DNA from: a filamentous cyanobacterium Phorm 6 | Lineage (GTDB): Bacteria; Cyanobacteriota; Cyanobacteriia; Cyanobacteriales; Microcoleaceae | Direction of reading: 5' to 3' | DNA: 36,446 nt | Assembly (NCBI GenBank): GCA_003003725.1 | Contig: PVWI01000024.1 | Span: 1-36,446 of the forward strand | Part shown: one piece after another, positions 2,994 to 36,242 of the stretch | How the letters are laid out: each line of letters begins with the position of its first letter | Numbering within the stretch: position 1 is the first letter of the stretch | Notes under the pieces: model-generated | The model's input: only the letters and a program-made list of their open reading frames with translations | Database searches by the model: none | Told to the model about the DNA's origin: nothing | Program-made: the position numbers and the translations under genes

Positions 2994-3035
2994 AATAAGC
3001 CGTGCATTTGTTATTAACCAGATGCACGGCTTATT
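2994..3035 (-). terminator. Hairpin terminator between AAA+ gene and small gene
   Basis: A perfect 14-bp inverted repeat (AATAAGCCGTGCAT at 2994-3007, ATGCACGGCTTATT at 3022-3035) with a 14-nt loop lies 12 bp past the stop of the minus-strand gene at 3047. On the minus strand it is followed by ATTT. It may act in both directions and also end the AAA+ transcript. Its GTGCAT/ATGCAC core is shared with the 55-bp hairpins at 19048-19425. Confidence 0.75.
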
Positions 3036-3046
3036 GTATAAGTAAT

Positions 3047-3280
3047 CTAAGACTTAACTTGGACGCGGTAGCCGCAATTTTCAAGGCATAGTTTTACTCC
3101 CTGCCAAGTTAAACCTGTTTCTGGTTCAAGCGGTACAGTTAAAGCATTGGTTGTGTAGCCGCGCTCTCCCTCTTGCCTGATAACGCTATATTCAGCTTGG
3201 TGCAGCATGGCAATAGCGCATTTTGATAACTTACCAACGATATTTGCGGCTTGGTTACTAACAGTGAGAATTACATTCAT
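3047..3280 (-). CDS. Small hypothetical protein with a decayed paralogue at 19.4 kb
   Basis: A 77-residue product starting MNVILTVSNQAANIVGKLSK. It has two Cys residues in the C-terminal part (KLCLENCGY) and no signal or membrane segment. I do not recognise a family. That the gene is real is supported by an independent homologous copy at 19426-19561, where similarity follows the codon frame and extends about 40 bp upstream of the start, and by a strong terminator directly downstream. In both places the gene lies downstream of, and opposite to, a Ycf46-like ATPase or its remnant, so the two probably belong to one ancestral module. Confidence 0.7.
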   Translation of the reverse strand: MNVILTVSNQAANIVGKLSKCAIAMLHQAEYSVIRQEGERGYTTNALTVPLEPETGLTWQGVKLCLENCGYRVQVKS

Positions 3281-3463
3281 TATGTTTTGAAATCAACTCT
3301 TCACTTGCACAACAACAATCGTTGTTTAGGGGTGGGAGGTTGGGCGAGGAATTATGCGGTGACTGTTAGGGGAATGGGGAGTGGTCAGGAAGTGGAATTT
3401 TCACAGCAATGCCTGCGGTGCGGTTTCTCCCCTCCCCACTCCCAATCTTTCCCCGTTAATCTC

Positions 3464-12416: not shown

Positions 12417-14354
12417 ATGAACAATTTGCAATTTCTGCCTAAAATTAACAAAGCTACCTTGATACCAATGGCAGTTCAAACTCCTAAACGTTCGTTAACT
12501 AGCATAGATTTTGGCGGGTTGTTGGGTCAGTTTATGAAGCCAGAGGGACTGGCAATGTTAGGGCTAATGGCAGGCTTACTTATTGCTTCCAAATTAGTTG
12601 GAAACGGGAAAGGTAAAATTACCTCCGGACGGCTCTGCGGGACGGCTGAAAAATTGGCAGCCACAGGCTCTGCCCTCAAGCAAATGAAAGAAAAAAAACG
12701 GCAACCTGTTACTTTGTGGAGCGGTACGCCGAGTTATTGGTTTAAAGGTTGTCAGGGATTGAGTGCTCGATTGCAAACGCTATTAGGTGCAAATCCGACG
12801 GTTTGGTTTCCCCACGCAGAACGCGGAACTTTAGTCATTGGTGCTCCGGGTTCTGGCAAAACATTCAGCGTCATTGACCGGATGGTTGAAAGTGCATTCC
12901 AGCAAGGTTTTCCTGCCATTATTTACGACAAGAAAGGAGACCAGATGAAAGTGCTTGCACCCCTTGCAGTGCGCTATGGCTACGATGTGCAAGTGTTTGC
13001 GCCAGGGGAAGCTTACAGCGGCACTATCAATCCTCTGGATTTTATGAGAGATGCACAAGATGCAGTAATGGCAGCAGAAATTGGACAAGTTATTGCTCGA
13101 AATGCTAGTCCGGGGGAGAGTAAAGGCAATGAGTTTTTTGAGAAAGCAGGCGAGTTGATGGCGAAGGGTTTAGTGCAGTTGGCAAAAAGCAGTCCTTACC
13201 CGGATTTAGCTTTTGTGTACGCAATTATTCAACTCCCAGATTTGGTCAAGCGCATCGACCACGCCGTTCACCGACCCGACGGTCATCCCCTCAAAATGGA
13301 CAGGTGGATTGCCTCTAGTTTTTCGCAGTTATTAAGTTCAAAAGATGCTGAAAAAACAGTGGCGGGCATTAAGGCAACCGCAGAGGCAACCTATTCCAGT
13401 TTCATTCAAAAAGATTTGCTGCGGGCATTTATTGGTCGCAGCACCATTCCGATTGCTTTAGAAGGCAAAAAGTGCATTATTTTCAAATTAGATGACCAAA
13501 GGCGCACTGTAGTGGGGCCGCTGTTAGCTGCTGCTATTCACTTATGTGTGGTGTCTAATTTGAGTCGGGTACGTTCTGACCCATTTGTGTACTGCTTAGA
13601 CGAGTTTCCGTCTCTCAAGTTTGACAGAATGGATCAGTGGGCTAACGAATATCGTTCTGCTGGCGGCGTGCCGATTGTTGGCATTCAATCCCTCAATCAA
13701 CTCTATAATCTCTATGGGGATAAAAAAGGGGCTGCGATCGCCAGTGCTCTGTCAACTCATGTCCTCTTCAACCCCGGCGATTTTGAGACAGCCGAAAAAT
13801 ATTCTAAGCGGTACGGGGAAGTGGAAGTGCTGGTAAAAAATCGATCGACCGGCAGCTCGACGGGGCAGCAAACGAGCCGTTCTGTCAACTGGAGCGAACA
13901 GTTGCAAAAGAAACCGCTGATTAGTCCTGACGAAATTCTGAGGTTTCCTCAAGGCAAGTGCGTCATCACTTCACCGGCCTACGCAACGGGGACGGAAGCT
14001 TTATTTCCCTACCCTCTCAAGATTCCGGTGCGGCCCGGCGACATAAAGCGAGCTAAAGAGTCTGAACAACTGTGGGACAGCAGCATCAGACCGCAGCTTG
14101 AAAAGCGGGCGAAAGCTTTGTCAGTAGAGCAGCAGACGGGTAAACTGCTCAATATAGATGAAGAGCTGGATCAGCGGATTCGATTCGCTTACCAATTGCT
14201 GCCACATCCGAACGATCCAGAAGAACCCGTGACTGTGGCTGATGTTGAGTCGCCTGTTAATGCTGGTGGTGCGAACAGTGCGGCTGGGAAAATAGCGGTT
14301 GACAATATTCGGGAAAAACTCAAAACTTTATCATTATATGGTGGCGAGCGATAA
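12417..14354 (+). CDS. Type IV coupling protein (TraD/VirD4/TraG-like ATPase)
   Basis: 645 residues. One probable membrane helix (EGLAMLGLMAGLLIASKLVG) precedes a FtsK/TrwB-type motor: VWFPHAERGTLVIGAPGSGKT (Walker A), YDKKGDQMKVL, TINPLDFM, Walker B FVYCLDEFPSL and GVPIVGIQSLNQLY, which is the usual order in coupling proteins that pump relaxase-bound DNA into a type IV channel. The first ATG is 12417; one at 12468 is possible. The stop codon and the start of the sensor kinase gene share one base (TAATG), implying coupled translation. No relaxase, VirB4 or VirB11 lies in the window, so the transfer system, if complete, extends beyond it. Confidence 0.92.
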   Translation: MNNLQFLPKINKATLIPMAVQTPKRSLTSIDFGGLLGQFMKPEGLAMLGLMAGLLIASKLVGNGKGKITSGRLCGTAEKLAATGSALKQMKEKKRQPVTLWSGTPSYWFKGCQGLSARLQTLLGANPTVWFPHAERGTLVIGAPGSGKTFSVIDRMVESAFQQGFPAIIYDKKGDQMKVLAPLAVRYGYDVQVFAPGEAYSGTINPLDFMRDAQDAVMAAEIGQVIARNASPGESKGNEFFEKAGELMAKGLVQLAKSSPYPDLAFVYAIIQLPDLVKRIDHAVHRPDGHPLKMDRWIASSFSQLLSSKDAEKTVAGIKATAEATYSSFIQKDLLRAFIGRSTIPIALEGKKCIIFKLDDQRRTVVGPLLAAAIHLCVVSNLSRVRSDPFVYCLDEFPSLKFDRMDQWANEYRSAGGVPIVGIQSLNQLYNLYGDKKGAAIASALSTHVLFNPGDFETAEKYSKRYGEVEVLVKNRSTGSSTGQQTSRSVNWSEQLQKKPLISPDEILRFPQGKCVITSPAYATGTEALFPYPLKIPVRPGDIKRAKESEQLWDSSIRPQLEKRAKALSVEQQTGKLLNIDEELDQRIRFAYQLLPHPNDPEEPVTVADVESPVNAGGANSAAGKIAVDNIREKLKTLSLYGGER

Positions 14355-20803: not shown

Positions 20804-20823
20804 CAAAATAATGGGTAGAAACC

Positions 20824-20839
20824 CCGTCTTAAAAGACGG
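20824..20839 (-). repeat. End hairpin of the IscB element
   Basis: Perfect 7-bp palindrome CCGTCTT-AA-AAGACGG, 12 bp past the iscB stop. It fits a subterminal recognition hairpin at the right end of an IS200/IS605-type element, and could also terminate the iscB transcript. Confidence 0.65.
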
Positions 20840-20850
20840 CTTTACTTGAG

Positions 20851-22014
20851 TTAAAATTGGTATGAATATCCATCTTTCCTCTGAAGAGTCTGACAGTATT
20901 TATGGCTAATACCTTGTACCAATTCTTTTGCCGAAATATTGAAAGAGCCACTGCTGCGAACAGCCACTCGACCAATATATTGACCAACTTTCTTTCCCCT
21001 GGTTACTACTGCTTTAACAAGGTCGCCAGTTTGAAAACCTTTGACAAATTTGTCACGAGGTACATAACGAGATGGAAAACCAAATTTATCAGTGCGGCAC
21101 ATTTGTCGAGTGCCGTGACCGTTGGCCTTGATTAACAATGGTTGAGTGGTTAACACAATTAATTTATCAACCTTGCCAACACAAGCAGCGTCAAAATAAT
21201 GAGTTTTGGGCAACTCTAATCGAGTGCGATTGTATTTTGTCTGCCCGCCGGAACCCGTCGTAACAGGTAATCCCGTTAGCTTGAGTTGATTAAACAATGC
21301 CCAGCGGGTTGAGTTGACGGCGGTAGCATCTTTGAGTGGTTGTTTGACTTGTGCCATAATTTGCTTGAGCAAATCTGGCTTCTTTAAAAGGAAGTCGTTA
21401 ATATCTTGAGTACCTTTCTTGAGATTACATTTTTCGCAAGCTAGACACAGATTAGAGATTCGATTGCTACCTCCTTTTGCCTTGGGATGAATGTGTTCTA
21501 CCTGCAAAGGAATATTTTCTACCTTGCAGTAAGTACATTTTCTCTCCCATTTGTTGAGCAGATATTCTCTGATTTCGTACCCAAGTAATTCGCCTTGCTG
21601 ATATTCGACCCCAGAAATTTCAGGTTTCTCTAGTTGTTGAAGGTCGAATCGAACTAACTCCATCGCAATACTATTTACGGGTGCAAATTTGATGAATTTG
21701 TTGACCCAGGTCAACGTAGTATCTACTCGATGTTTTAAGCTAGGAGCTAGCCAACCTTTCGGACGAATGCGATTTAGGAAACGCGCTTGACGGTAGCGGG
21801 TATGTCTAGCTCGACGACTTCTACGGATAGCACGACGAGAATCCAAGCTAGCTTTAATTGCTTGTCCTCTGTGATTTAGCTCACCTACGAAGATGATATT
21901 TTCACCTTTTAGTAGCGCAATTCCCGTAGTTTTACTACCGGGATCGAGTTTGATCTCGTAGCTTGCGGGGCGGAACGCCATCGACTGTTCAGTTGTATTG
22001 ACAGCACGTTTAAG
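20851..22014 (-). CDS. iscB: IscB RNA-guided nuclease, exon 2 (RuvC, bridge helix, HNH)
   Basis: 387 residues that continue exon 1 in frame. Order: RuvC-I KLDPGSKTTGIAL (Asp at spliced residue 67), an Arg-rich bridge helix (RRAIRRSRRARHTRYRQARF), RuvC-II SIAMELVRFD, an HNH domain (CTYC, VEHIHPKAKGGSNRISN, CLACEKC) inserted between RuvC-II and RuvC-III, RuvC-III THYFDAACVG, then a basic C-terminal region. All expected catalytic residues are present. IscB proteins use an omega RNA to cut DNA and are ancestors of Cas9. A longer ORF starting at 22188 exists, but its first 58 codons are intron sequence, so the coding part is taken from 22014. Spliced length is 430 residues, normal for the family. 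Confidence 0.93.
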   Translation of the reverse strand, partial: LKRAVNTTEQSMAFRPASYEIKLDPGSKTTGIALLKGENIIFVGELNHRGQAIKASLDSRRAIRRSRRARHTRYRQARFLNRIRPKGWLAPSLKHRVDTTLTWVNKFIKFAPVNSIAMELVRFDLQQLEKPEISGVEYQQGELLGYEIREYLLNKWERKCTYCKVENIPLQVEHIHPKAKGGSNRISNLCLACEKCNLKKGTQDINDFLLKKPDLLKQIMAQVKQPLKDATAVNSTRWALFNQLKLTGLPVTTGSGGQTKYNRTRLELPKTHYFDAACVGKVDKLIVLTTQPLLIKANGHGTRQMCRTDKFGFPSRYVPRDKFVKGFQTGDLVKAVVTRGKKVGQYIGRVAVRSSGSFNISAKELVQGISHKYCQTLQRKDGYSYQF

Positions 22015-22056
22015 GTCGGGTAAGAGGGCATACGTCGCCGTACCCCCCTCCCCAAC

Positions 22057-22090
22057 GAACCGGACGTGACACTTTCGCATCATCCGGCTC
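22057..22090 (-). ncRNA. Group II intron domain V
   Basis: A 34-nt hairpin with the catalytic AGC triad at its base (GAGCCGGATGATGC), a GAAA tetraloop and the closing GTGTCACGTCCGGTTC. It is the most conserved part of group II introns and is intact, which supports self-splicing competence. Confidence 0.92.
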
Positions 22091-22111
22091 TGGCATTCTT
22101 GGACTCCGAGG

Positions 22112-23824
22112 TTATTTAGTACCATGAACTTTCCTATGACAAATTTGGTGAAGGTGTATAAGATTGTCGATTTCATCTGTGCCTTCATTTGTCACTTCAG
22201 TTATGTGGTGAGTGTGGATTTGTTCTCCGTTTAGCAGGTAGTCTCCGCATTCAGTGCATCTCCAGTGCTGGAATTGAGCCACTTTGTAGAGCTTCGAGCC
22301 TTTAGCCCATACGCTACTACCCAGTTTTGATTGGCGTTTCTTCCAGTAATCTACTTTGGTTGAGTCATCTGGACTAGCTGCGCCTTCAACCTTTGTATGT
22401 CTCAGGATTGGGATGTCACTTACATCTAAGAGATAAAGTCTCTTTCTTTTTCCTGTTCTATCCTTAGTGTCGGCAAAGAATGTCCAGTGGTCATTTCCCA
22501 GTACGGTAAAGTATTTGTTCTTTACCCATTTGAGATGTTTCTGGTGGTGTCGTCTTTTACACCATTGCCATAGCATTTGTACCATTCTATGGTTGAATGT
22601 AGCGAAGATTTCCTTGCTGGAGCAGTGCCTGTAATAGTTCGCCCATCCTCTTAGTATAGGGTTTAGATGTTTGATGACTTCTTCCGGTTTTACCGTTTTG
22701 TGTCTTTTGAGCCATCCTCTAATTTCTCTGAGTTTGGCAATCATCTTATCCTTTTGAGGTTTGCAGAGCGTGGTTCCATCTGAGTAGCTTCGGATTGTAA
22801 AACCGAGGAAGTTGAACCCATCTCGCTTATTGACGATGTTGGTTTTTTCTTCGTTCAGTTCTAGTCCTCGCTTTTTCAGCCATTCCTTGATTTCAGGCAA
22901 AATAGCTTCCAAGTCTTCCTTTGTTTCGGCTGTGACAAGGAAATCATCGGCATATCTGATGTACCCAAATCTAGGATAATACCTGTTTGTGTAGTAGGTT
23001 TTGCCTTTGTATTCCCCACTCTTGCTCTGTTTGACTTTCTGGTGGTTGGATAATACTTCTCCTTCCAGTCCGTCTAGGGCGATGTTAGCCAGAAGTGGGC
23101 TAATGATACCGCCTTGGGGAGTGCCTGTTTCTGTTGGGTTAAACTTGTTGGCCTCCACGTAACCTGCTTTTAGCCACTGTTTAATTAGCTCTTTGCTAGG
23201 AATTTCTCCGAGAGCATTGAGTATGTATTCGTGGCTGATGTGGTCAAATGCTCCTTTAATATCTGCGTCTAGAACCCATTCATCGCCTCCTTTTCGTAAT
23301 CGGGTATGAACTTGTTCTATTGCATCGTGACAGCTTCGCCCTGGTCGAAAGCCATAGCTGTTGGCTTCAAATCTAGCTTCCCAACTTGGCTCCAGTGCGT
23401 TTTTGACCACTCCTTGCATTACTCTATCCTTGAGAGTTGGTATCCCCAAAGGACGCTTTTTACCATTGGCTTTTGGAATGTATATCCTTTTAGCAGGCTT
23501 TGCTTTCCAAGGGTTCAGCTTCAGGATTTCGTGTATTAGTTGGATTCTCATCTGAGGGTTGAGAGCAAGTTGGTTATCCACTCCTGCTGTTTTCTTCCCT
23601 TGGTTAGTTTGAGTGACCCGTCTAACTGCAAGTAGCAGGTTGGACTTACTTTTTAACATGAGTGAAGTAAGGCTCCTGACCTTATTCCACTCATTCCTCT
23701 GAGTCGCACGATAAATTCTCTGTCTGAGATTTCTCACCACCTTTGTAGCAGCTTTCCAATTAAGGTCTGCCCATTTCTCAGGTAATGCGTCTGTTCCGAT
23801 TTCGTTACCGAATCTATCTTTCAC
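22112..23824 (-). CDS. ltrA: Group II intron maturase: reverse transcriptase with HNH endonuclease
   Basis: 570 residues from a GTG at 23824 (GGAAA about 11 bp upstream). Reverse transcriptase blocks are present (KANGKKRPLGIPTLKDRVMQ, SYGFRPGRSCHDAIEQ, the active site YIRYADDFLV, LNEEKTNIV), then the maturase X domain (HLNPILRGWANYYRH) and a C-terminal HNH endonuclease (CTECGDYL, HTHHITEV, NLIHLHQICHRKVHG). All domains look intact. The protein helps its intron fold for splicing and copies it into DNA. The ORF lies in domain IV, upstream of domain V, the normal place. ORF and RNA both intact suggest a recent insertion. Confidence 0.95.
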   Translation of the reverse strand: MKDRFGNEIGTDALPEKWADLNWKAATKVVRNLRQRIYRATQRNEWNKVRSLTSLMLKSKSNLLLAVRRVTQTNQGKKTAGVDNQLALNPQMRIQLIHEILKLNPWKAKPAKRIYIPKANGKKRPLGIPTLKDRVMQGVVKNALEPSWEARFEANSYGFRPGRSCHDAIEQVHTRLRKGGDEWVLDADIKGAFDHISHEYILNALGEIPSKELIKQWLKAGYVEANKFNPTETGTPQGGIISPLLANIALDGLEGEVLSNHQKVKQSKSGEYKGKTYYTNRYYPRFGYIRYADDFLVTAETKEDLEAILPEIKEWLKKRGLELNEEKTNIVNKRDGFNFLGFTIRSYSDGTTLCKPQKDKMIAKLREIRGWLKRHKTVKPEEVIKHLNPILRGWANYYRHCSSKEIFATFNHRMVQMLWQWCKRRHHQKHLKWVKNKYFTVLGNDHWTFFADTKDRTGKRKRLYLLDVSDIPILRHTKVEGAASPDDSTKVDYWKKRQSKLGSSVWAKGSKLYKVAQFQHWRCTECGDYLLNGEQIHTHHITEVTNEGTDEIDNLIHLHQICHRKVHGTK

Positions 23825-24415
23825 AGAAGTTTGATTTCCTTACGTTGGTTTATCGTTAAACACCTGCCAGAATTTGGCTTCCTTTCAGTTGGAGCAAATC
23901 TTGAACTCCTATCTGTGGCATTACCCACAGCATTCGCTTTTTCTGGCATCCTTTACCCTCTAGGTATTCTGCTTTCCTTACGGTTGGCTTACTCAGACTT
24001 CGACCTGTACTGAGAACCTATAGGGCTTTCCGCAGTTCTATGTGTTTGAGATTCGTCACGGGTCGGGTTCCATCTCTACTCCGGTGGGATTATATTTCGT
24101 CGAACTAGAGAATCATCAACTCTAGTTCTACCCCCTTACCTTTTGGTGAGAGTGTTTCAGCCTGATTTCACTCTTTATTCATCACGAAGTGTACAAACGA
24201 TGGTTACTGGTGATTAACCCTTTCGTGCTTCCCCTTGCTCCTTTCCAACTTAGGCTGTTAGATTAGGCTACTTTCGTGGTCTGCATTCCATTAGGTTCAT
24301 TATTTACTACTAACGTGACCGGGGTAGCGTGACCCTTTTACGTGGGGACAACGGGACGAAATCCGTTGGGAGAGAAGGCTCTCCACTCAGAACACGTAGC
24401 TTAACTACGTCGCGC

Positions 24416-24544
24416 AATGATGGTAAATGGGTATCTACGGAAGACCGCAGCTTCGCCATTCGAGAGTAATCTTCTAGCCACGGCAGGATGAACGGGATGT
24501 AGTGGTTGTTTATTTGGATCCAGTACAAAGGTATAGTTTTGCAT
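24416..24544 (-). CDS. iscB: IscB exon 1 (PLMP domain)
   Basis: 43 codons from an ATG with GGGAG about 8 bp upstream. It encodes the N-terminal PLMP-type domain of IscB: YTFVLDPNKQPLHPVHP, ARRLLSNGEAAVF and RRYPFTII. Unspliced reading goes four codons into the intron (ARRS) and stops at 24401-24403, so without splicing only a 47-residue fragment is made. The downstream partner is at 20851-22014. Confidence 0.92.
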
Positions 24545-24800
24545 GAAATTCTCCCTTGCGGGGTAATGTTTGCTTCGCCAATATTTCAAGAGCTTGTTAA
24601 GCTAACAACACTGTTTCAGTGACCGTAAAACTGTTTAATTGTTAGCGACAGAGCAGAAGACTAGCACGCATCTAAGGGTGTCGTGACTCTCGAAATGTAG
24701 TCAGTTAAGACTGTGGCTGGTCAGAATGGCTTACTGGATTTCTCCGGCAAGCCTCATGCCTTTAGGCTGAGGTTCCTGACGAGTACAAGTCTGAAAAATG
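24545..24800 (-). ncRNA. Candidate omega RNA for IscB
   Basis: The ~250 bp directly upstream of iscB contain no ORF but many hairpins on the iscB strand: an 8-bp arm pair GCTAACAA/TTGTTAGC at 24601-24646 enclosing CACTG-TTT-CAGTG (24608-24620), and a CCTC.GCC/GGC.GAGG hairpin at 24752-24772. This is where omega RNA genes lie in IscB elements; the guide would come from sequence at its 5' side, near or beyond 24800. No complete covariance match could be tested here, and the ends are approximate. Confidence 0.7.
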
Positions 24801-25092: not shown

Positions 25093-27717
25093 TTAAAACG
25101 CTTCGCACAGCAGCAGCCCCACCTGCTTGAGTAAAGCTTTGTTACCATCAGGGCATCCCGACTGAATCAAACATTTAGGACAGCCAGAACTGCAAGAACA
25201 ACTGCGGGCTAACTCAGCAGCCGCATGAGCTAATTGAGGGAGAGAACGAAAAATAGCTTCCGAGGTTCCCGAACCTCCTTCTGCTAAATCGTAAAAGAGT
25301 CCTGCATAGTCATTTGCACCTCTCTTCTCTACCAGAAAATTCACATCATTAGGTGAAGCCAAAATAGTCAGAGGTAAAGCTGCTAAAATTTGATGGCCGA
25401 AACTGTGAATAGCCAACAAATTCGCGGGGTACTCCCACAACTGCTGATATCCGGGCGGAATCTGCTGTTGAGATTGAAGCAATTCCTGGCGAGTAGCTGT
25501 TACTACCTGTTGCAGGTAACATTCAACCGGGGAATTAAAACTAATTTGCAGTACAGGAGTCGCAAATTTAATTTCGTAAGGTTGCTCAAAGTTTACCTCA
25601 TTAAGAACCGATGTTAGCTCAGCAGAGCGAGTTCTCTTGCCACAAACAGGACAGGCAGTACATTTTGGTAAATGCTCTCTGTAATTGACACACTTTCTAT
25701 TGAGACAAGTTAACTCGTAATTGCGAGTTAATAATTGATAACCAGTGACGAGTTGGCTAATTTCTCCCCAAACCAGTTCCAGAATAGCTTGAGCTGGAAT
25801 TGCCTTACTATCCGTTGAATTGGTTTGAACATTTCCTTCAACTTCTGGAATGACCAACGGGATTTGTTGAGGCAAACTCAAATTCTGCTTGAGGCTGGTA
25901 TCAGTGTGGCTAATCGCTACAGTAAACAGTCGAGTTTCAGGGGTGTTTTGCAAAATAGCTTTGCCATTCAAGAGCGAGCGCGAAGTATAAGTCACCAAAC
26001 AGCCGTCTGAGTTTTGCGTGCGGTAAATAGCACCAGGAAATACCTCTCGATAAGCAATCTCCGCACTGAGGAGTTCAATCTCTTCTTGAGTCTCCGCATC
26101 CACCAGTTGTATCGTGCTAGAACCCGTTCCCCCTCGAAAGTTTACATCTTTATGGGGAAAGCCCTTAGCCCATAATTTATCCCGGCTTCTGTGAAGAACA
26201 CCTTGCTCAATTAAAGCCGTTGCAATTTGAGGAGCGCTCTTGCCAAAGTAGTGCTTGAGCTTACTGGCAGGAATGCCTGTTTCGACAGCCGCGCACATCA
26301 AATGTTTGGCAATATCTATGGGATAATTGGCATTAAAGCTCACCAATTCAGATTCGGCCGACAGCAACAATTCAGGGCGCTCGGCAAAATAGTTATCCAA
26401 AGGTGATTGTGCAATAGGAATAAAGACAATTAAACCGGAGTTTGCGCGACCAGCCCTGCCAGCCCTCTGCCTGAAAGCTTGCAAGCTTCCCGGCCATCCC
26501 CTAATAATAGCAAAGTCAAGTTGAGGCAAATCAATTCCTGCTTCGAGAGCGCTAGTGCTGAGGATACACTTAACTGTTCCTGACTGCAAAGAGTTAATAA
26601 TTTCCATGCGGCGCTCGCTTGTTAAACTGCCGTAGAAAATTGCTACTTGCGACTCAATTCCCGAGTTAGTTTGAGTTACAGCTTCTTGCTTAAAAGTGGC
26701 CCACAAGTTCTTAATTGCTTGTCTGCCGTTACTGAAGCAAATTCCGCTTTGCCCTTGCTGCAACAAAAACATAATGATGCGAGCAACATCTGAATTAGCA
26801 TCATGAGTCGGTTTAGTAACAATTAATTGCCGTTCTGGGACAGCAGCTCCGCTAGAGTTAATCCAAACTAACCGCTCGGGTTTATTGATATTTCGCTTTC
26901 GACTTCTACCAGATAGTAACTTCGCTAATTTAACGGGATTGCCAACGGTAGCACTCAATATCAGGAATTGCAGTTTTTGAGAAGAACCTCCGCGCTCGTC
27001 TACTGCCAATTTTAAGCGGCGAATTAAGCTAGCCATGTTAGCTCCGTAAACTCCGTTAAAAGTGTGAGCTTCATCTAGGACAATATAGCGGAGGCGACTT
27101 AAAAAATGCTGCCAAGGCTGACTCCAGTGAACGCCTTTCAGCGCATAGTGAATTAACTCTGGTGTGGCGCTGATTATGCTGGGATTTGCAGCTAATAATT
27201 GTTCTCGGGTTTTGGGAGGAGTATCTCCAGTTAGAAGGGCAAGGCGCGGGCGCGCAGGCTCAGGAATCAGTTGGAGCAAATCGGCAAGTTTTTGACTTTG
27301 GTCGGCTGTTAAAGCTTTCAAGCCATAAATAGAGAGTGCAGTAAATTGATGTTGGAGAATGCCCTCTAAAATAGGCAAGTACGCACTTAAAGATTTGCCA
27401 GAAGCTGTTGCTGTGCTGAGGATGACATCTTTGCCCTGGCGCACGGCTTTGAGTGTTTTAATTTGGTGGGAATAAAGCTGTTGAATGCCTTGGCTGTGCA
27501 AAGCAGAAATTATTGAAGGCGGCAAGTCTTGAGGAATTTTGTAGAGCTTAGGAGTTGTAGCAGTCGCGATTGTCTGATAAATAACCTCTTCGCCTAAAAA
27601 CTCACACAAATCGGCTGTTGCAGTTGGCTGCAAGTGGCTTGCTTCTGGGAAGTTAATTTGGTGAAAATCATGTCTGGCTATTAGTTGGGAAAGAAGGTTG
27701 ATATAATTGGGAGGCAT
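25093..27717 (-). CDS. MrfA/YprA-type DEAD/DEAH helicase with DUF1998
   Basis: 874 residues. Helicase domain 1: LYSHQIKTLKAVRQGKDVIL, Walker A STATASGKS, LKALTADQSQKL, DEAH box (IVLDEAHTF), SAT (LILSATVGNP). Domain 2: GICFSNGRQAI, VAIFYGSLTSERR, LSTSALEAGIDLP and the arginine-finger motif FRQRAGRAGR. The C-terminal DUF1998 part includes a zinc-like Cys cluster (CLNRKCVNYREHLPKCTACP) and a final SCSCSSGCPKCLIQSGCP. This is the layout of YprA/MrfA 3'-5' helicases, which act in excision repair of mitomycin-type adducts in Bacillus. DrmA of DISARM also has DUF1998 but is larger and comes with a methylase and other drm genes, not seen adjacent here. Confidence 0.9.
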   Translation of the reverse strand: MPPNYINLLSQLIARHDFHQINFPEASHLQPTATADLCEFLGEEVIYQTIATATTPKLYKIPQDLPPSIISALHSQGIQQLYSHQIKTLKAVRQGKDVILSTATASGKSLSAYLPILEGILQHQFTALSIYGLKALTADQSQKLADLLQLIPEPARPRLALLTGDTPPKTREQLLAANPSIISATPELIHYALKGVHWSQPWQHFLSRLRYIVLDEAHTFNGVYGANMASLIRRLKLAVDERGGSSQKLQFLILSATVGNPVKLAKLLSGRSRKRNINKPERLVWINSSGAAVPERQLIVTKPTHDANSDVARIIMFLLQQGQSGICFSNGRQAIKNLWATFKQEAVTQTNSGIESQVAIFYGSLTSERRMEIINSLQSGTVKCILSTSALEAGIDLPQLDFAIIRGWPGSLQAFRQRAGRAGRANSGLIVFIPIAQSPLDNYFAERPELLLSAESELVSFNANYPIDIAKHLMCAAVETGIPASKLKHYFGKSAPQIATALIEQGVLHRSRDKLWAKGFPHKDVNFRGGTGSSTIQLVDAETQEEIELLSAEIAYREVFPGAIYRTQNSDGCLVTYTSRSLLNGKAILQNTPETRLFTVAISHTDTSLKQNLSLPQQIPLVIPEVEGNVQTNSTDSKAIPAQAILELVWGEISQLVTGYQLLTRNYELTCLNRKCVNYREHLPKCTACPVCGKRTRSAELTSVLNEVNFEQPYEIKFATPVLQISFNSPVECYLQQVVTATRQELLQSQQQIPPGYQQLWEYPANLLAIHSFGHQILAALPLTILASPNDVNFLVEKRGANDYAGLFYDLAEGGSGTSEAIFRSLPQLAHAAAELARSCSCSSGCPKCLIQSGCPDGNKALLKQVGLLLCEAF

Positions 27718-28776: not shown

Positions 28777-29727
28777 TTATTTAGTGAGTTGAGTGATTCT
28801 GAGCAAAGCAGGCAACATTGAATCAGACTTTTCTCCGGTTTTGAGGGCAATTTCTAAATCAAACAAAATGGAGAGCGATCGACTTAAGAAGTTCGCAGAT
28901 ACTTCCTTAACCTCCTGCTTAAGAAAATACAGCCGTTTGGGGTTACTAATTCCGCACATACTAGCAATTTCACTATCAGAAAGTTTGCCGCCGGAATCCA
29001 GAGTAGCTTTTACCCACAGCCAAGTTTTAAACTGAGTTTGAAGAGTAGCAATAATTGCTAAAGAAAACTCTGCCCGAGATAGCAATTCATCAAGCACCTT
29101 AATTGCCGCCACTGCTTGACCTTTTAAAAGAGCTTCTGCCAGTTGAAAACAGTTGGCTGTGGTAGCTGGAACGAGGATTTTAGCAGCTTCTTTGGTAATG
29201 CGATCGCCCGCAGCATAAATGGCTAATTTCTCCAGTTCACTAACTCTTCTAGCAGAATCGTTACCAATCGCTACCGCTAGATAACTGACAGCATCTCTGG
29301 CAATTGAGAGATTCATCTGTTTAGCAGTAGCAGCGATCGCACTTTCAATTAAATCAGTACGCCAAGGGGGAATGAGAGTAAATTCCTTAAGTTTACCAAA
29401 CAGCAATAAATGCTTGACTACCTTGAGCCGTTTGTCGATAACAGCAGCAGTGAAAACTAAGTGCGTTGTCGCGGGTAATTGGGGCAAAATTTGCAGCAAT
29501 TCTAGCCCCATTTCTCCAAATTGCTTGAAATCGCAATTTTCAACGACAATAAGTTTGTTTCCACCGCCGAAAGGAACTGAAGCAGCAGCAGAGAGGGCTG
29601 CATCCAGGGAAGAAGCATCGAAGCGGTGGATGTTGAAATCTCGCCAGAGAGGATGAGTTTGAGTCTTAAACTTTTCAACTTCTCGTTCAATTGCGTAGGT
29701 GTCATTCCCAATTAGGATGCTAATCAT
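28777..29727 (-). CDS. holA: DNA polymerase III delta subunit
   Basis: 316 residues with the HolA layout: MISILIGNDTYAIEREVEKF at the start (clamp-loader fold without a functional Walker A), FNIHRFDASSLDAALSAAAS, PFGGGNKLIVVENCDF, THLVFTAAVIDKRLK, an ALAVAIGNDSARRVSELEKL-like core and a helical collar C-terminus (LLSRAEFSLAIIATLQTQFK). Delta opens the beta clamp ring. Its start overlaps the dnaX stop by 4 bp (ATGA at 29724-29727), so loader subunits are made together. This tight dnaX-holA pairing is unlike most chromosomes, where the two genes are far apart, and suggests a mobile-element replisome. No delta-prime (holB) gene is in the window. Confidence 0.92.
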   Translation of the reverse strand: MISILIGNDTYAIEREVEKFKTQTHPLWRDFNIHRFDASSLDAALSAAASVPFGGGNKLIVVENCDFKQFGEMGLELLQILPQLPATTHLVFTAAVIDKRLKVVKHLLLFGKLKEFTLIPPWRTDLIESAIAATAKQMNLSIARDAVSYLAVAIGNDSARRVSELEKLAIYAAGDRITKEAAKILVPATTANCFQLAEALLKGQAVAAIKVLDELLSRAEFSLAIIATLQTQFKTWLWVKATLDSGGKLSDSEIASMCGISNPKRLYFLKQEVKEVSANFLSRSLSILFDLEIALKTGEKSDSMLPALLRITQLTK

Positions 29728-31139
29728 GCTGCTAACTCCTCCTGTTGTTTGACAGTGACAGTAACAGAGCGGCCTAAAGCTTTAGTAACAATCCGCTGCA
29801 CGGATTCAAGGTGACTCTGAAACTTGTTCGCGTATTTTCTTTCTACTACTAACACACATGAATCAGCCGAAAGTTCGGCAATTTGAGCGCGGTTTAAGAG
29901 GCTACGATTGCCTGGTTTCGCGGCTGCTACTACTTGCGCCCAAGTTGTCTCAAAGTCAGGAGAATCTGCCTCTATTTTTTGAGGGGTTTTATCAAATTTG
30001 TCAGGCTGATTAGATTGGGAAGTTGCCGGCAACCGCGTTTCGGGGGCAGCGGGTTTGCTTGACAGCATCAAGTTCAGCAGACAGACTTCTAACCAGGTAG
30101 CAGCATTGGTGCTAGTTCTCAATTGAAATTCTGATTTTTGCAATTGTGTACAAGCCGCATCAATTGTTTCAAAATCGAGATGAAGAGCGATCGATCGCAG
30201 TTGTGAATAGCCTACTGGCCCTGCAATTAAATTCTGGCAGTGGCGCGTTGATTTGACAATGAGCAAATCTCTCATTGCTGCTAGCAAGCTGCTGAGAATC
30301 AGTTTGGGGGTTTTGCCGCTGTCAATGAGCGTTCTCGAAGATTGCAGTACGCTTAAGGTATCGCCAGAATGAATGGCTTTGAGAAGGGCGATCGACTCTT
30401 GCTCGCTGATACTGCCAGATACTTCTGCAACTTGAGTTAGGGTAATCTCTGAGTTTAGCAGTGAAAGCTGAGAAAGTAATTGCAGGGCATCTCTTAACCC
30501 TCCGTCGCAGGTGCGAGCGATCGCCCGCATGGCCTCACTTGCGATCTCAATAGATTCAGCGGAGCTAATTTTGTGCAATTGTCCGACAATAGCATCAACT
30601 GACAAGGCTCGGAAGTTAAAAGTTTGGCAGCGGGAGATAATTGTCGGCAGGACTTTATGTGCTTCAGTCGTACAGAGAATAAACACCACATGAGCCGGAG
30701 GTTCTTCAAGGCATTTGAGGAGAGCATTTTGAGCGCTGGTACTGAGTTGGTGGCACTCGTCTAAAATCCAGATGCGGTAAGGGCTCATCGCTGGCGCAAA
30801 GTTGCTGTGTTGTATTAATTCTCTGGCATCATCCACGCCATTGTGAGAGGCAGCATCGATTTCAGTTACGTCTAAGCTTGAACAGGAGTCAATGGTTTTG
30901 CAGCTTGAACATTCTCCGCAAGGAGTGGCGGTTGGCTTTTTGCTATTCAAACAATTGAGGGATTTAGCAAGGATGCGAGCGGTTGAGGTTTTGCCTGTTC
31001 CTCTGGGGCCAGTAAACAGGTAAGCTTGAGCAATTTTGGAGGAGGTGATGGCATTGGTCAAGGTTGTTTTGATTGTGTCTTGACCCACTAATTCTTGCAG
31101 GTTTTTGGGGCGGTATTTGAGGTGCAGTGGTTGGTACAT
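29724..31139 (-). CDS. dnaX: DNA polymerase III gamma/tau subunit
   Basis: 471 residues. AAA+ clamp-loader core: LKYRPKNLQELVGQ, Walker A GPRGTGKTSTA, a zinc-binding Cys set (CLNS.., CGECSSCKTID), DVTEIDAASHNGVDDAREL, Walker B WILDECHQLS, SRC motif (ISRCQTFNFR) and a collar. A ~90-residue linker leads to a C-terminal domain (WAQVVAAAKPGNRSLLNRAQ). It is short compared with chromosomal tau proteins, so the alpha- and helicase-binding parts may be reduced, as in gamma. It loads the beta clamp with holA. Upstream (31140-31560) are palindromic repeats that may include its promoter. Confidence 0.94.
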   Translation of the reverse strand: MYQPLHLKYRPKNLQELVGQDTIKTTLTNAITSSKIAQAYLFTGPRGTGKTSTARILAKSLNCLNSKKPTATPCGECSSCKTIDSCSSLDVTEIDAASHNGVDDARELIQHSNFAPAMSPYRIWILDECHQLSTSAQNALLKCLEEPPAHVVFILCTTEAHKVLPTIISRCQTFNFRALSVDAIVGQLHKISSAESIEIASEAMRAIARTCDGGLRDALQLLSQLSLLNSEITLTQVAEVSGSISEQESIALLKAIHSGDTLSVLQSSRTLIDSGKTPKLILSSLLAAMRDLLIVKSTRHCQNLIAGPVGYSQLRSIALHLDFETIDAACTQLQKSEFQLRTSTNAATWLEVCLLNLMLSSKPAAPETRLPATSQSNQPDKFDKTPQKIEADSPDFETTWAQVVAAAKPGNRSLLNRAQIAELSADSCVLVVERKYANKFQSHLESVQRIVTKALGRSVTVTVKQQEELAA

Positions 31140-32925: not shown

Positions 32926-34428
32926 CTATTCTTGCGGAGCGACAATATATTCGCACTCTAAAGCCTCTGTACCCGATGCAGGCGTTCCAAACGGTGCAAT
33001 CAGTAGGGGAGCGGTAGGAGTTGCCATTAACACCCGCAAATCAGAGCTGGAAATCGCTTTGGCTGTATCAATCAAATAGCGGATGTCGCACTTGAGACAA
33101 AACTCACAACCCCATAGCTTGGCATCAACTGTCTCAGTTCCTGAACTGAGAGTATTGTTGAGTGATGCTCGCAATTGTTGGGCATCTAAATCGAATTCTA
33201 AAATAGCTGTTAGGTGAGACTTGTCGCTGTGAGAAGCTAACCTCTCTAAGGCTTTTAAAAAGCTCAGCCTCTCAACCACCACTTGATGGCTAAATTGATG
33301 CCGATAGGGAGCGATAATTTGGTCACAAATTGGATATTGCCCTTCTAGCAACTTCGTTGTCAACCGCCAATTATTCCACTCGAATGCGACAAAATTACTA
33401 GGTTGCTCTGGCAAACCTTCATAGTAAATCGTAACTTTGTCAGCAGAATTCAAAGAACGCTCCAATAACCGGAGTACCTTAGCAGGGACAGTAAAATCAA
33501 CTATTTGACTGCTCAAAAGATGGGAATTGCTGCTTTCGTTCAATCCTAAAACCATTGCTACCCGATGCCCATCTGTTGTCCAAACTCTCAGTTGATCGAG
33601 TCCTCTGTCTGCGTCGTGACTGAGTTGAAAATTCCCTCCTGTTAAAATGCGTTTGTTTTCCTCAGAACTTACAGCAAATAAGCTAGCTTTTAGGACAGAA
33701 ATTAATACGCTAGCAGGAAGCGTTACAAGTTTCTGTTGAACGCTGGGGATAGCCGGAAATTCGTCCGCAGCTAGCCCGCGAATGGCGTGCTTGCTTCTTG
33801 ACGCACTCAGAGTGGCACTGACTGATGGAACGTCGCTTCCTTTAATAATTTCAGAAGAACTCTTTAAAGTGAGGTTGCCGTTAGGAAATTTTCCCAAAAT
33901 GTCAGCAAGTATGGGTGCGGGGAGGGTAAGCTTTCCAGATTGATTGACATTCGCACCAAAGCTCACTTGCATTCCAAATTCTAAGTTGTAAGCAGTCAGG
34001 TGCAAATGTTGAGTTTCTGCATCAGCTTCAATCAAAATATTGGACAAAATGGGATGGCTGCTATTGCTGGGAATGATGCCTTTCAGAGCTTGCACGTAAT
34101 CGTTGAATTCTCTTGAATCGCAGGCAACTTCAATAGGTGATGGGAGAGGAGAAGGGGAAGGCAATATTGCCTCATTTGACAAGGTTTCTAGAGAAGGAAC
34201 ATCGACGGCTGGAAGTTCTGCAAAACTCGTGCAAGTTTGCAAGGCTTCTACTTCTTGTGGAGAGATTGTTGAGGGTTCGCAAACCGAGTCAGTTTCAGTT
34301 GTTGGTTTGACTGATTTCTTCACAGTTTTGGCAGAATTATGTGCTGTGGCAGTCGAGCGTTTTTTCTTAACTGTTCTCTCCAAATTTTCCTCTTGAGGCG
34401 GTGTTCCTGTTAGTCGAGATTTTGCCAT
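32926..34428 (-). CDS. dnaN: DNA polymerase III beta sliding clamp with N-terminal extension
   Basis: The ATG at 34428 gives 500 residues; an upstream ATG at 34578 is open, but its first ~50 codons (Ser/Pro/Tyr/His-rich, read through a polypurine tandem tract) look non-coding. Residues ~99-500 follow the three-domain clamp (HPILSNILIEAD, LTLPAPILADIL, HAIRGLAADEFPAIP, LRVWTTDGHRVAM, FTVPAKVLRLL, EGQYPICDQIIA). Residues 1-98 are an extension rich in Lys, Thr, Ser, Pro (VKKKRSTATAHN, TVKKSVKPTTETDS), absent from normal ~370-residue clamps. The clamp lacks the usual C-terminal MPMR-like end and instead ends EYIVAPQE. It may tether the family A polymerase encoded at 3464-5422. Confidence 0.92.
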   Translation of the reverse strand: MAKSRLTGTPPQEENLERTVKKKRSTATAHNSAKTVKKSVKPTTETDSVCEPSTISPQEVEALQTCTSFAELPAVDVPSLETLSNEAILPSPSPLPSPIEVACDSREFNDYVQALKGIIPSNSSHPILSNILIEADAETQHLHLTAYNLEFGMQVSFGANVNQSGKLTLPAPILADILGKFPNGNLTLKSSSEIIKGSDVPSVSATLSASRSKHAIRGLAADEFPAIPSVQQKLVTLPASVLISVLKASLFAVSSEENKRILTGGNFQLSHDADRGLDQLRVWTTDGHRVAMVLGLNESSNSHLLSSQIVDFTVPAKVLRLLERSLNSADKVTIYYEGLPEQPSNFVAFEWNNWRLTTKLLEGQYPICDQIIAPYRHQFSHQVVVERLSFLKALERLASHSDKSHLTAILEFDLDAQQLRASLNNTLSSGTETVDAKLWGCEFCLKCDIRYLIDTAKAISSSDLRVLMATPTAPLLIAPFGTPASGTEALECEYIVAPQE

Positions 34429-34489
34429 AATTAGCCTGGTGTCAGGGGTGCGATTGGCCGCTGCGGTAGCAGCACTTGTTATGGTGCCT

Positions 34490-34556
34490 GAGAAAGGGAG
34501 TGAGAAAGGGGAAAGATAAGGGAAAGGATAATGGGAAGGATAATGGGAAAGAGAAT
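34490..34556. repeat. Polypurine tract with tandem GGATAATGGGAA
   Basis: A G/A-rich stretch upstream of dnaN includes two perfect copies of GGATAATGGGAA (34526-34549) and related GAGAAAGGG units. On the coding strand of dnaN this is polypyrimidine. It argues against the longest dnaN frame being translated. Confidence 0.8.
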
Positions 34557-34624
34557 ATAGCAATCCTAAATGATTCACAAAAATTTATAAGTTACATCTT
34601 CTCTTTCTTCTTATTTTATAAATA

Positions 34625-34780: not shown

Positions 34781-34860
34781 GTTACTTGAGGACTTTACCT
34801 ATTACTTGAGGACTTTACCTATTAGTTGAGGACTTTACATTGTACTTGAGAATTTTAGTG
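34781..34860. repeat. Four 20-bp tandem repeats over the helicase stop codon
   Basis: Units 34781-34800, 34801-34820, 34821-34840 and 34841-34860 follow ATTACTTGAGGACTTTACCT; the first three differ at 1-3 bases and the fourth is diverged. The helicase stop (34815-34817) lies inside, so its last ~13 codons are made of repeat. Iteron-like in size, they may bind a protein. Confidence 0.85.
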
Positions 34861-36242
34861 TTTGAGTACGAGTCATTGGGGGCAACAAATAATATCCGAT
34901 ATCGGCAGCGGCTTGCACCGACATAATAAAGTCGATGGTACTCTTTAAGTTTCTGTTGACTGCTCAAATCTTGACCGATTAACAATCTGCTGAAAAGGTC
35001 GCTTCCGTCAATACCAACTTCATCAAAAGTGCTGCCTTGCGAATTGTGAATAGTCAGAGCAAAGCAATTGTCAATTTCAGCAAACAAGTCATCTTTGAAC
35101 CAGTAATATTTCCTCCAAAGAAATCCATTGCGTTTAGCACTCTTGAGCTTTTCTTTAAGTTCAGCCTGGTAGCGCTTATTTTCCGACTCGTGCAGGACAA
35201 AGATTTGCCGAAATAAACCGTCATCAGTCACAATTTTTAGCAGCCAAACTCGATAGCCGCAGTGCTGGTTAATCTCAACTTCCTTGACGGTAAATTCCGT
35301 TGAAGTCGGCAAAATTACGGTTTTGCCGTCAGGTGCCATGACGGGTTTTTTGGTAATTAGCCTTTCTCCCGGTACAAATTGGGGTGCAGCTTGACCGTAG
35401 ACTTGTTCTCGGATAAGCTGATTGTAGTATCTGACTCGTTTGTTAGTCCAGCACAGAATTCTGAAACGATCGGGATTTTGACTAAATTCTAGATTGATCG
35501 TTTTGACGGCATATTGTAGCAGCGTTTCTGATTTGACTTTGAATGCACCGTTTGACTTGTCTCCTTTTTTGTATTTAGAGTGTGGCAAAAATATGTCTGC
35601 TTTGCTATTGACAAAAGATCGGCATTCTGTTATAAAATCGAGCACAGGGCTTTCCCCTGCTTGCCTGACAACTTTGGTCAGTACAGCTTTATTGGTAATG
35701 CTGAAAGCAGGCGACTTTTTGTCTCCTACAGGATTGAGTTGAGCGGGGTCGCCCATTAAAATTAGCTTGCGGTGATTGAAGAATGTGCGTTCAAAATTGC
35801 GTTCTATCCATTTCCACAATTCGCTTCCAACCATCGAACATTCGTCGAGGAAGATGATATCGTAGAGGTGAAGGCTGCTGGAACTTGTCTGTGACAAGGC
35901 TTTTTCTTGTTCTTTTCTGACCATGCCTAATCCTAAAAGTTGGTGTATTGTCATAAAATCTACTCCGAAAATGCCTTGAGACGCTGCCATTTTTCTGAGG
36001 ATGCCGACTGCTTTGTTAGTAGGTGCTGTGAGGGCAATGCGTTTGCTTTGACTCAAGAGTTCTTGGATAATTTGGAAGACGATTGTGGATTTTCCAGTTC
36101 CTGCATAGCCGCACAGCAAGAAGAATGACTCGGTAGTGGTTAGAAAGGTTCTCAATTTGTCAAGGGCTTGCTGCTGTTGCGGTTTGAGTGTGAAGGCAAA
36201 TTGTGTAAGTTTCTGGGGTTGTTCGAGTAAGGTTTGAATCAT
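34815..36242 (-). CDS. SF1B helicase, Dda/RecD-like
   Basis: 475 residues. Walker A GYAGTGKST near residue 45, motif Ia ALTAPTNKAVG, Walker B IIFLDECSM, motif III LMGDPAQLNPVG, motif IV-like RILCWTNKRVRYYN, motif V ALTIHNSQGSTFDEVGI and motif VI LYYVGASRCRYRI. Length and motif order match T4 Dda, a 5'-3' helicase that helps start replication and displaces proteins from DNA. The C-terminal ~13 residues are read through a 20-bp tandem repeat. Genes on this strand (helicase, dnaN, dnaX, holA) form a replication block, although they are not one operon because of the GDSL gene and MITE between them. Confidence 0.92.
   Translation of the reverse strand: MIQTLLEQPQKLTQFAFTLKPQQQQALDKLRTFLTTTESFFLLCGYAGTGKSTIVFQIIQELLSQSKRIALTAPTNKAVGILRKMAASQGIFGVDFMTIHQLLGLGMVRKEQEKALSQTSSSSLHLYDIIFLDECSMVGSELWKWIERNFERTFFNHRKLILMGDPAQLNPVGDKKSPAFSITNKAVLTKVVRQAGESPVLDFITECRSFVNSKADIFLPHSKYKKGDKSNGAFKVKSETLLQYAVKTINLEFSQNPDRFRILCWTNKRVRYYNQLIREQVYGQAAPQFVPGERLITKKPVMAPDGKTVILPTSTEFTVKEVEINQHCGYRVWLLKIVTDDGLFRQIFVLHESENKRYQAELKEKLKSAKRNGFLWRKYYWFKDDLFAEIDNCFALTIHNSQGSTFDEVGIDGSDLFSRLLIGQDLSSQQKLKEYHRLYYVGASRCRYRILFVAPNDSYSNTKILKYNVKSSTNR

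What the first reader, a model, noticed from the sequence alone, without database searches (positions are those of the whole stretch)
20851..24544. Group II intron precisely splits an iscB RNA-guided nuclease gene
Exon 1 (43 codons, PLMP domain) and exon 2 (387 codons with RuvC, bridge helix and HNH) become one 430-residue frame when 22015-24415 is removed. The junction gives FTII-LKRAV, as expected for IscB. Intron ends (GCGCG.., ..AC), branch-A candidate, domain V and the maturase with HNH are all intact, so a functional iscB may depend on splicing. One mobile RNA-based nuclease hosting another mobile ribozyme is an unusual nested arrangement: the intron could gate nuclease activity.
Basis: partly seen in the sequence, partly recalled or inferred. 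Interest (0 to 1): 0.88.

Follow-up and report, generated by a model that had tools for sequence, protein, structure and literature searches.

The report
Self-splicing intron inside transposon nuclease gene
In a filamentous cyanobacterium, a self-removing, self-copying RNA element (a group II intron) sits inside the gene for IscB, a relative of the ancestor of Cas9, at a spot it can recognise in many IscB genes; the complete nuclease can probably be made only after the intron splices itself out.

Summary
On the minus strand an omegaRNA (24780-24563) precedes iscB exon 1 (24544-24416), a 2,401-nt group II intron (24415-22015) with an intact 570-aa RT/maturase/HNH ORF, and exon 2 (22014-20851). 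Without the intron the frame is a 430-aa IscB with RuvC and HNH residues present. Tychonema sp. LEGE 07203 has the same locus without the intron, joined exactly here. In Oscillatoria nigro-viridis PCC 7112 two identical copies of the intron (1.25% from the window's) sit at the homologous codon boundary of two iscB genes, one about 98% and one about 68% like the window's: recent site-specific movement between iscB genes. EBS1/EBS2, found by covariation, pair with the codons of the IscB motif YPFTII. A different intron interrupts a Calothrix iscB 15 nt upstream. Related introns occupy tnpB genes (five copies in PCC 7112). So the intron is real, recently mobile and homes to iscB; complete IscB very likely needs splicing. 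Conditional gating has no support; constant damping of the host gene has a precedent (Ll.LtrB). Introns homing into other mobile elements are a known kind; iscB as host was not found in my literature searches. RNA evidence is missing.

The parts
24563..24780 (-). omegaRNA (HEARO) upstream of the split iscB
   Evidence: Rfam RF02033, 150.5 bits against gathering 83, full model 1-211
24781..24796 (-). presumed 16-nt guide just outside the omegaRNA scaffold
   Evidence: Position recalled from IscB biology, not tested; no convincing match to the exon junction (9 of 16 bases, shuffled mean 8.8)
24416..24544 (-). iscB exon 1, 43 codons, most of the PLMP domain
   Evidence: Joined frame intact; Pfam RRXRR spans the junction; PLMP strands 5-8, 14-18, 32-36, 41-44 in the model of the intronless orthologue
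24424..24428 (-). IBS2 (ATTTA) in exon 1
   Evidence: Pairs with EBS2, 4.5 of 5
24416..24421 (-). IBS1 (ATCATT), last six bases of exon 1
   Evidence: Pairs with EBS1, five Watson-Crick and one G-U
22015..24415 (-). group II intron, 2,401 nt, GCGCG...CCCGAC
   Evidence: DV-DVI by Rfam; empty-site allele L056; 98.75% identical intron twice in PCC 7112
24177..24181 (-). EBS2 (UGAAU)
   Evidence: Covariation, 0 of 5000 shuffles; its hairpin is not recovered by folding (z 0.26)
24112..24117 (-). EBS1 (GAUGAU), in the 9-nt loop of a 9-bp hairpin (24102-24128)
   Evidence: Covariation, 0 of 5000 shuffles; fold z -2.16
22112..23824 (-). intron-encoded protein, 570 aa: RT (YADD at 291), maturase domain, C-terminal HNH
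   Evidence: Pfam RVT_N, RVT_1, GIIM, HNH; TIGR04416; best PDB sequence match 6me0 chain C over residues 14-568
22015..22092 (-). domains V and VI; bulged adenosine at 22021 (7 nt from the 3' splice site) as branch-point candidate
   Evidence: Rfam RF00029; fold -44.3 kcal/mol, z -4.87, unpaired A in the DVI stem
20851..22014 (-). iscB exon 2, 387 codons plus stop: end of PLMP, RuvC, bridge helix, HNH, C-terminal region
   Evidence: NCBIfam guided_IscB, Pfam HNH; D67, E162, H217, N231, D318 present
20810..20843 (-). right-end palindrome of the iscB element
   Evidence: Same motif follows two omegaRNA-only elements, L007 and L009, among 18 loci and the window searched

Best explanation
A mobile group II intron of cyanobacterial type lies, in phase and in sense orientation, in the iscB gene of an omegaRNA-IscB element on what looks like a conjugative plasmid. 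Two loops of its domain I (EBS1, EBS2) pair with DNA that encodes a conserved IscB motif (YPFTII), so the intron RNP can reverse-splice into that site in many iscB genes and be copied by its own RT (retrohoming). In RNA the intron splices out with help of its maturase and the exons rejoin as a full 430-aa IscB frame. The junction is inside the last strand of the PLMP domain, so without splicing no complete IscB can be made. By precedent (Ll.LtrB) the excised intron may also lower the level of spliced iscB mRNA. Shown: anatomy, empty-site allele, identical copies in two different iscB genes, EBS/IBS covariation. Inferred: splicing in vivo, RNP activity, IscB activity, any damping.
For: Anatomy and intact frames. 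Intronless orthologue joined at the same base, L056. PCC 7112: two introns identical over 2,401 nt at the homologous site of two iscB genes; the plasmid gene differs from the window's at 15 of 1,290 coding bases, the chromosomal one is 68% identical over 1,091 nt. EBS1 and EBS2 pairing better than any of 5000 exon shuffles in 16 representatives of 23 intron copies. The EBS pair scores at least 9 of 11 at the homologous site in 54 of 83 other iscB loci scored (87 given), against 25 of 72,852 window positions, the occupied site included. DVI bulged A at -7. Group II mobility uses the spliced lariat RNP (established knowledge), so a recent identical copy implies recent splicing. IsrB lacking PLMP residues 1-52 lost nicking (PMC9581776, passages).
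Against: No RNA data. 5' terminus GCGCG, not GUGYG. The window site and the chromosomal PCC 7112 site share only 16 of 25 bases before the junction, no more than their surroundings (24 of 35). Single introns pair poorly (L170 EBS1 3.5 of 6; L165 and L175 EBS2 3 of 5), and the loops were picked on the same data. The EBS2 hairpin is not recovered by folding. By pattern only 3 iscB loci with this intron were found in 388 genomes of the order, although most scored iscB genes offer a pairing site. A 445-aa ORF opens exon 2 from inside the intron, and the PCC 7112 homologue is annotated so.
Confidence: 0.9

Rival explanations
1. The insertion has killed this iscB: splicing is too weak to matter and the gene is a pseudogene that has not yet decayed.
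For: No RNA data; [quoted passage not shown] the Calothrix case has an in-frame stop at codon 351 of its spliced frame; group II introns can strongly reduce host mRNA (PMC6003770, abstract).
Against: Exons, catalytic residues, maturase and ribozyme ends are intact in the window and both PCC 7112 copies keep open frames of 430 and 424 aa; identical intron copies imply recent splicing-dependent movement. dN/dS between window and the intronless allele is about 0.25, on 15 differences only.
Confidence: 0.12
2. The intron regulates IscB: either a conditional splice switch, or a constant brake in which the excised intron reopens spliced iscB mRNA through EBS/IBS pairing, in cis and on mRNA of intronless iscB genes.
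For: Ll.LtrB does this to its host relaxase mRNA (PMC6003770, abstract). EBS pairing sites exist in 54 of 83 other iscB loci. In this assembly only two iscB genes were found, and nine omegaRNA-only elements resemble this locus's omegaRNA (67-77%) more than that of the other iscB (50-54%).
Against: No sequence sign of conditional splicing was seen; a near-identical locus lives without the intron. Braking is untested here; a brake is compatible with the main explanation, a conditional switch is not needed.
Confidence: 0.2
3. IscB helps the intron spread: an omegaRNA-guided cut of intronless iscB alleles would promote intron homing.
For: PCC 7112 and LEGE 07203 share a near-identical iscB tract (2 differences in 1,290 nt) inside flanks that differ by about 3 to 6%, so iscB segments are exchanged.
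Against: Of 12 presumed guides the best match within the 60 nt around the junction is 10 of 16 (L008), the rest 8 or 9, with shuffled means of 8.6 to 9.3. Ordinary recombination or homing of the whole iscB element explains the tract.
Confidence: 0.03
4. Exon 2 is expressed alone from a start inside the intron as a PLMP-less protein with its own role.
For: Open frame 20851-22188 with ATG; such a gene is annotated in PCC 7112.
Against: It lacks most of PLMP; loss of PLMP abolished nicking by IsrB (PMC9581776, passages).
Confidence: 0.04

Closest known systems
Thermosynechococcus elongatus group II introns (PMC2882425; passages seen)
   Same: Cyanobacterial mobile group II introns with EBS/IBS-guided retrohoming; family F4 has three introns at a conserved site of insertion element ISEL1 (IS200 family), F3 lies in other introns; the paper names insertion at a conserved site of another mobile element as a way of proliferation. 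Best solved relative of the maturase is 6me0 chain C (recalled as the T. elongatus 4h intron).
   Different: Host gene is iscB, the frame is precisely restorable, and one intron occupies two different iscB genes.
Ll.LtrB in the relaxase gene of a conjugative plasmid of Lactococcus lactis (PMC6003770; abstract and outline seen)
   Same: Group II intron inside a gene of a mobile element, spliced, with EBS/IBS matching the host gene.
   Different: Host gene is a relaxase; its mRNA-level inhibition was measured, here it is only a possibility.
IStrons (PMC4227781; passages seen)
   Same: Self-splicing intron combined with a transposon of the IS200/IS605/IS607 world.
   Different: IStrons are group I introns fused with the IS; here a group II intron lies inside the nuclease gene.
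omegaRNA-IscB (OMEGA) elements of cyanobacteria
   Same: HEARO directly upstream, PLMP-RuvC-HNH protein, terminal palindrome.
   Different: The gene is split; in PCC 7112 it is annotated as an RRXRR peptide, an ltrA gene and a shortened iscB.
tnpB-resident relatives of this intron, found here (L184, L188-L191 in PCC 7112; L174, L187, L168)
   Same: Introns of the same wider family that interrupt tnpB, with open joined frames.
   Different: Other EBS loops and targets; in the maturase tree they do not group with the iscB intron.

Membership tests
Group II intron | Catalytic domain V and domain VI with bulged adenosine | tested here: met
   Rfam RF00029 58.5 bits at 22092-22015; bulged A at 22021
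Group II intron | Termini near the consensus GUGYG...AY (a consensus, not obligatory) | tested here: inconclusive
   3' AC fits; 5' GCGCG differs at base 2, shared by 4 of 22 other related loci; TeI4h works with an odd 5' base (PMC2882425, passages)
Group II intron | EBS1/EBS2 pair with the end of the 5' exon | tested here: met
   5.5 of 6 and 4.5 of 5 in the window; 0 of 5000 shuffles over 16 introns
Group II intron | Intron-encoded RT and maturase domain, active site intact | tested here: met
   RVT_1, GIIM, HNH; YADD at 291
Group II intron | Precise empty site in a relative | tested here: met
   L056
Group II intron | Splicing in RNA | not testable with these tools
   No RNA data
IscB (OMEGA nuclease) | PLMP, RuvC with bridge helix, HNH, catalytic residues | tested here: met
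   NCBIfam guided_IscB 456.6 bits; Pfam RRXRR 231.2 bits and HNH; fold of the intronless orthologue ranks IscB structures first (8csz E 2.2e-23), but model quality is moderate (mean pLDDT 73) and overall superposition loose (TM 0.50, rmsd 16)
IscB (OMEGA nuclease) | omegaRNA encoded next to the gene | tested here: met
   HEARO ends 18 nt before the start codon
IscB (OMEGA nuclease) | RNA-guided DNA cleavage | not testable with these tools
   No assay
IStron (considered) | Group I intron fused with the IS element | tested here: not met
   No group I intron reached its gathering score in the window

The most novel reading that the evidence does not exclude
Cyanobacterial group II introns have specialised, more than once, on the genes of transposon RNA-guided nucleases: by pairing with DNA that encodes conserved motifs (YPFTII in IscB, the AIRTAQFVRN region in TnpB) one intron homes through a nuclease family, makes the nuclease depend on splicing, and may brake it by retargeting spliced mRNA and the mRNA of intronless copies. 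In the window's genome one spliced gene would then serve about nine dispersed omegaRNAs.
Probability: 0.28. Interest if true: 0.8.

Novelty: new variant of a known kind. Interest (0 to 1): 0.62.

Why it matters
IscB and TnpB are the transposon nucleases from which Cas9 and Cas12 arose. Here such a gene is itself the home of another RNA-based mobile element, at a site fixed by the nuclease's own conserved motif. If splicing is shown, an RNA-guided nuclease depends on a ribozyme parasite, and perhaps is braked by it. Annotation cuts such genes into false fragments (as in PCC 7112), so surveys can misread them. Two identical introns in two iscB genes of a completely sequenced strain make homing, splicing and nuclease dependence directly testable.

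Tried and rejected
IscB-guided homing of the intron: best of 12 guides matches 10 of 16 bases near the junction, shuffled means 8.6-9.3. Group I intron or IStron: no hit at gathering score in the window. Viral contigs: no stretch for the maturase, four iscB loci without an intron in the matched stretch. More intron-split iscB at the same site: 23 places in 388 genomes; 20 have loci and were examined: the window and the PCC 7112 chromosome are intron-split iscB, L210 is iscB without intron, 17 show no iscB. Of the three places without a locus one is the PCC 7112 plasmid copy; the other two (G147, G174) were not examined, their matched letters repeat those of examined places. A 3'-junction pattern gave 3 places in 386 genomes, iscB only in the window. 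A pattern for the Calothrix-type site gave 2 places in 376 genomes, neither iscB. NCBIfam survey: 92 of 243 genomes hold iscB over the cut-off; the listed matches (list cut at about 465 bits) are full length, so split or partial genes lower down were not seen. Plasmids: 79 records with an iscB match, 60 listed; among those listed the only intron-split one recognised is pOSC7112.02; partial ones were not examined. An Oceanisphaera maturase fragment overlaps the end of iscB on the other strand and does not split it.

Direction of transfer between PCC 7112 and LEGE 07203 is undecided. Intron and exon differences between window and PCC 7112 are alike (1.25% and 1.2%), which suits an old insertion lost in LEGE 07203; the identical intron on the PCC 7112 chromosome suits a recent gain on the plasmid.

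Literature: nine searches (one search returned nothing). Fifteen papers hold both 'iscb' and 'group ii intron'; I saw passages of six (PMC9581776, PMC8987985, PMC4227781, PMC12948488, PMC11061315, PMC12558985), none describing an intron in iscB; nine were seen only as listing and start of abstract. Other papers: passages of PMC7923331, PMC8919778, PMC2882425, PMC4424553, PMC3073962; abstract of PMC6003770. The library holds open-licence papers only.
Full report
What is there. The window's minus strand carries, in order, an omegaRNA (HEARO, 24780-24563), iscB exon 1 (24544-24416), a group II intron (24415-22015), exon 2 (22014-20851) and a right-end palindrome (20843-20810). The intron is 2,401 nt, lies between codons 43 and 44, and holds a 570-aa ORF with RT, maturase and HNH domains and YADD. 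The spliced frame is 430 aa. NCBIfam calls it IscB (456.6 bits, cut-off 175); Pfam finds RRXRR and HNH. Residues D67, E162, H217, N231 and D318 are present (alignments to two solved IscB chains). A model of the intronless orthologue (mean pLDDT 73) ranks IscB structures first, with a loose overall superposition (TM 0.50, rmsd 16).

Where the intron cuts. In that model the PLMP strands are residues 5-8, 14-18, 32-36 and 41-44, and the next strand begins at 62. The junction after residue 43 lies inside the last PLMP strand. Deleting PLMP residues 1-52 abolished nicking by the related IsrB (PMC9581776, passages), so an unspliced exon 2 product should be inactive.

Empty site. A scan of 84,980 species genomes with the IscB protein kept 80 loci. 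In 67 one match spans more than 400 residues; of the other 13, one (L120) is split by another intron and the rest are partial, frameshifted, internally deleted or at contig ends. The nearest, L056 of Tychonema sp. LEGE 07203, matches the window with the intron removed over 2,665 nt at 97.6%, through the junction.

Mobility. One genome of the same genus (G012) holds two further copies. Its second contig matches pOSC7112.02 of Oscillatoria nigro-viridis PCC 7112 (NC_019730.1, same length and place), typed as conjugative by PLSDB. The plasmid copy is in the orthologue of the window's iscB (15 differences in 1,290 coding bases). The chromosomal copy is in another iscB, 68% identical to the window's over 1,091 nt. 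The two introns are identical over 2,401 nt and differ from the window's at 30 positions. Both lie at the homologous codon boundary (FTII-LK, FTLI-LK). Two other iscB genes of PCC 7112 have no intron. Group II introns move as spliced lariat RNPs (established knowledge), so this implies recent splicing.

How it finds iscB. Among 23 intron copies with their 5' exons, two loops covary with the exon. With 16 representatives, mean pairing is 5.03 of 6 for EBS1 (shuffled 3.71, sd 0.20) and 4.38 of 5 for EBS2 (best of two registers; shuffled 3.49, sd 0.16), 0 of 5000 shuffles each. The loops were chosen on the same data, so this is optimistic, and single introns pair poorly (L170; L165 and L175). EBS1 (GAUGAU) is in the loop of a 9-bp hairpin; a hairpin for EBS2 was not recovered. 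The loops pair with the codons for YPFTII: 10 of 11 in the window, 9.5 in the chromosomal PCC 7112 gene. At the homologous site of 83 other iscB loci (87 given) the score is at least 9 in 54, against 25 of 72,852 window positions, the occupied site included. The loci were picked for likeness to this IscB. Of three intronless iscB genes in the carrier genomes two score lower (L019 8.5, L223 7.5), one 9.5 (L222). The window site and the chromosomal site share 16 of 25 bases before the junction, no more than their surroundings (24 of 35).

A second case. In Calothrix sp. MO_167.B12 (L120) an omegaRNA is followed by iscB exon 1, a different group II intron (about 2120-4610, maturase 40% identical) and exon 2, giving VFRRF-PFTIILKE. 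Its site is 15 nt (five codons) upstream of the window's. Its exon 2 has an in-frame stop at codon 351 of the spliced frame, so the gene may be decaying.

Relatives of the intron. DNA matches to the intron were found in 125 of 196 genomes (two candidates scored per genome); many are partial. I fetched 27 stretches, two of them the PCC 7112 iscB copies. For 20 of the other 25 both ends could be set and the flanks joined. Eight give TnpB-like frames (L168, L174, L184, L187-L191); four of these (L168, L174, L187, L189) were scanned and all four exceed the NCBIfam TnpB cut-off. Five of the eight are PCC 7112 copies at one tnpB site. Three give group II RT genes by inspection (L166, L172, L179). 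Nine are unresolved. In a maturase tree of 25 rows (L168 dropped as short, L190 and L191 not included) the window and the two PCC 7112 iscB introns form one clade (100/100); five tnpB introns form another; L187 and L182 lie elsewhere; the Calothrix intron is far off. The tree gives no support for one nuclease-seeking lineage: the habit would have arisen more than once.

Recent exchange of the locus. PCC 7112 (with intron) and LEGE 07203 (without) differ at 2 of 1,290 coding bases, 0 of 217 omegaRNA bases and 0 of 42 right-end bases, while more distant flanks differ by about 3% on the left (70 of 2,170; 16 of 556) and 5.6% on the right (22 of 394). The near-identical tract begins somewhere 600 to 900 nt before the junction and ends near the right end of the element. 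The intron was gained or lost, exactly at the junction, since that exchange. The direction is undecided.

What may depend on it. The genome has 12 HEARO matches, nine over the gathering score, but only two iscB genes were found. Nine omegaRNA-only elements (L001, L002, L004-L010) are 67-77% identical to this omegaRNA and 50-54% to that of the other, intronless iscB; two share its right-end palindrome. That they use this IscB is inference; the assembly is in 526 contigs.

Could it regulate? Ll.LtrB, in a relaxase gene of a conjugative plasmid, lowers its host mRNA by EBS/IBS retargeting of the spliced exons (PMC6003770, abstract). The same could happen here, also to mRNA of intronless iscB genes with a pairing site. 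A conditional switch remains unsupported.

Comparison and verdict. Introns at a conserved site of an insertion element are published for T. elongatus (PMC2882425, passages); IStrons join group I introns with IS605-like elements (PMC4227781, passages). No paper on a group II intron in iscB was found in nine searches. I rate it a new variant of a known kind: confirmed observation, an iscB-homing group II intron, and an IscB that very likely depends on splicing.

Noticed in passing
L184, L188, L189, L190, L191 (O. nigro-viridis PCC 7112 chromosome): Five copies of a related group II intron interrupt five tnpB genes at one conserved site (RTA(Q/R)F(V/I)R-N), with three clearly different tnpB types.
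   Followed up: partly
L001, L002, L004-L010 (own genome): Nine omegaRNA-only mini-elements; L007 and L009 share the right-end palindrome of the window's iscB element, others end in a different palindrome.
   Followed up: partly
L126, L128, L129, L131, L133, L135: iscB genes that keep both ends but lack the middle (for example residues 1-56 then 251-430), a recurrent kind of internal deletion.
   Followed up: no
L056 and L219 around the iscB locus: Nearly identical iscB tract inside more divergent flanks; the right border falls at the end of the element.
   Followed up: partly
window 12417-14354, 25093-27717, 29724-31139, 32926-34578, 34815-36242: Plasmid-like genes: TrwB/TraG coupling protein, helicase with MrfA Zn-binding domain, DNA polymerase III gamma/tau-like and beta-clamp proteins, PIF1/AAA_30 helicase.
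   Followed up: partly
window 20851-22188 (-): 445-aa ORF that reads exon 2 back into the intron; the same kind of gene model is annotated as iscB in PCC 7112 and is probably a split gene read wrongly.
   Followed up: yes
L167 (G022:C170): Several pieces of related group II introns in one contig, one apparently beginning right after the domain V of another; a possible twintron.
   Followed up: no
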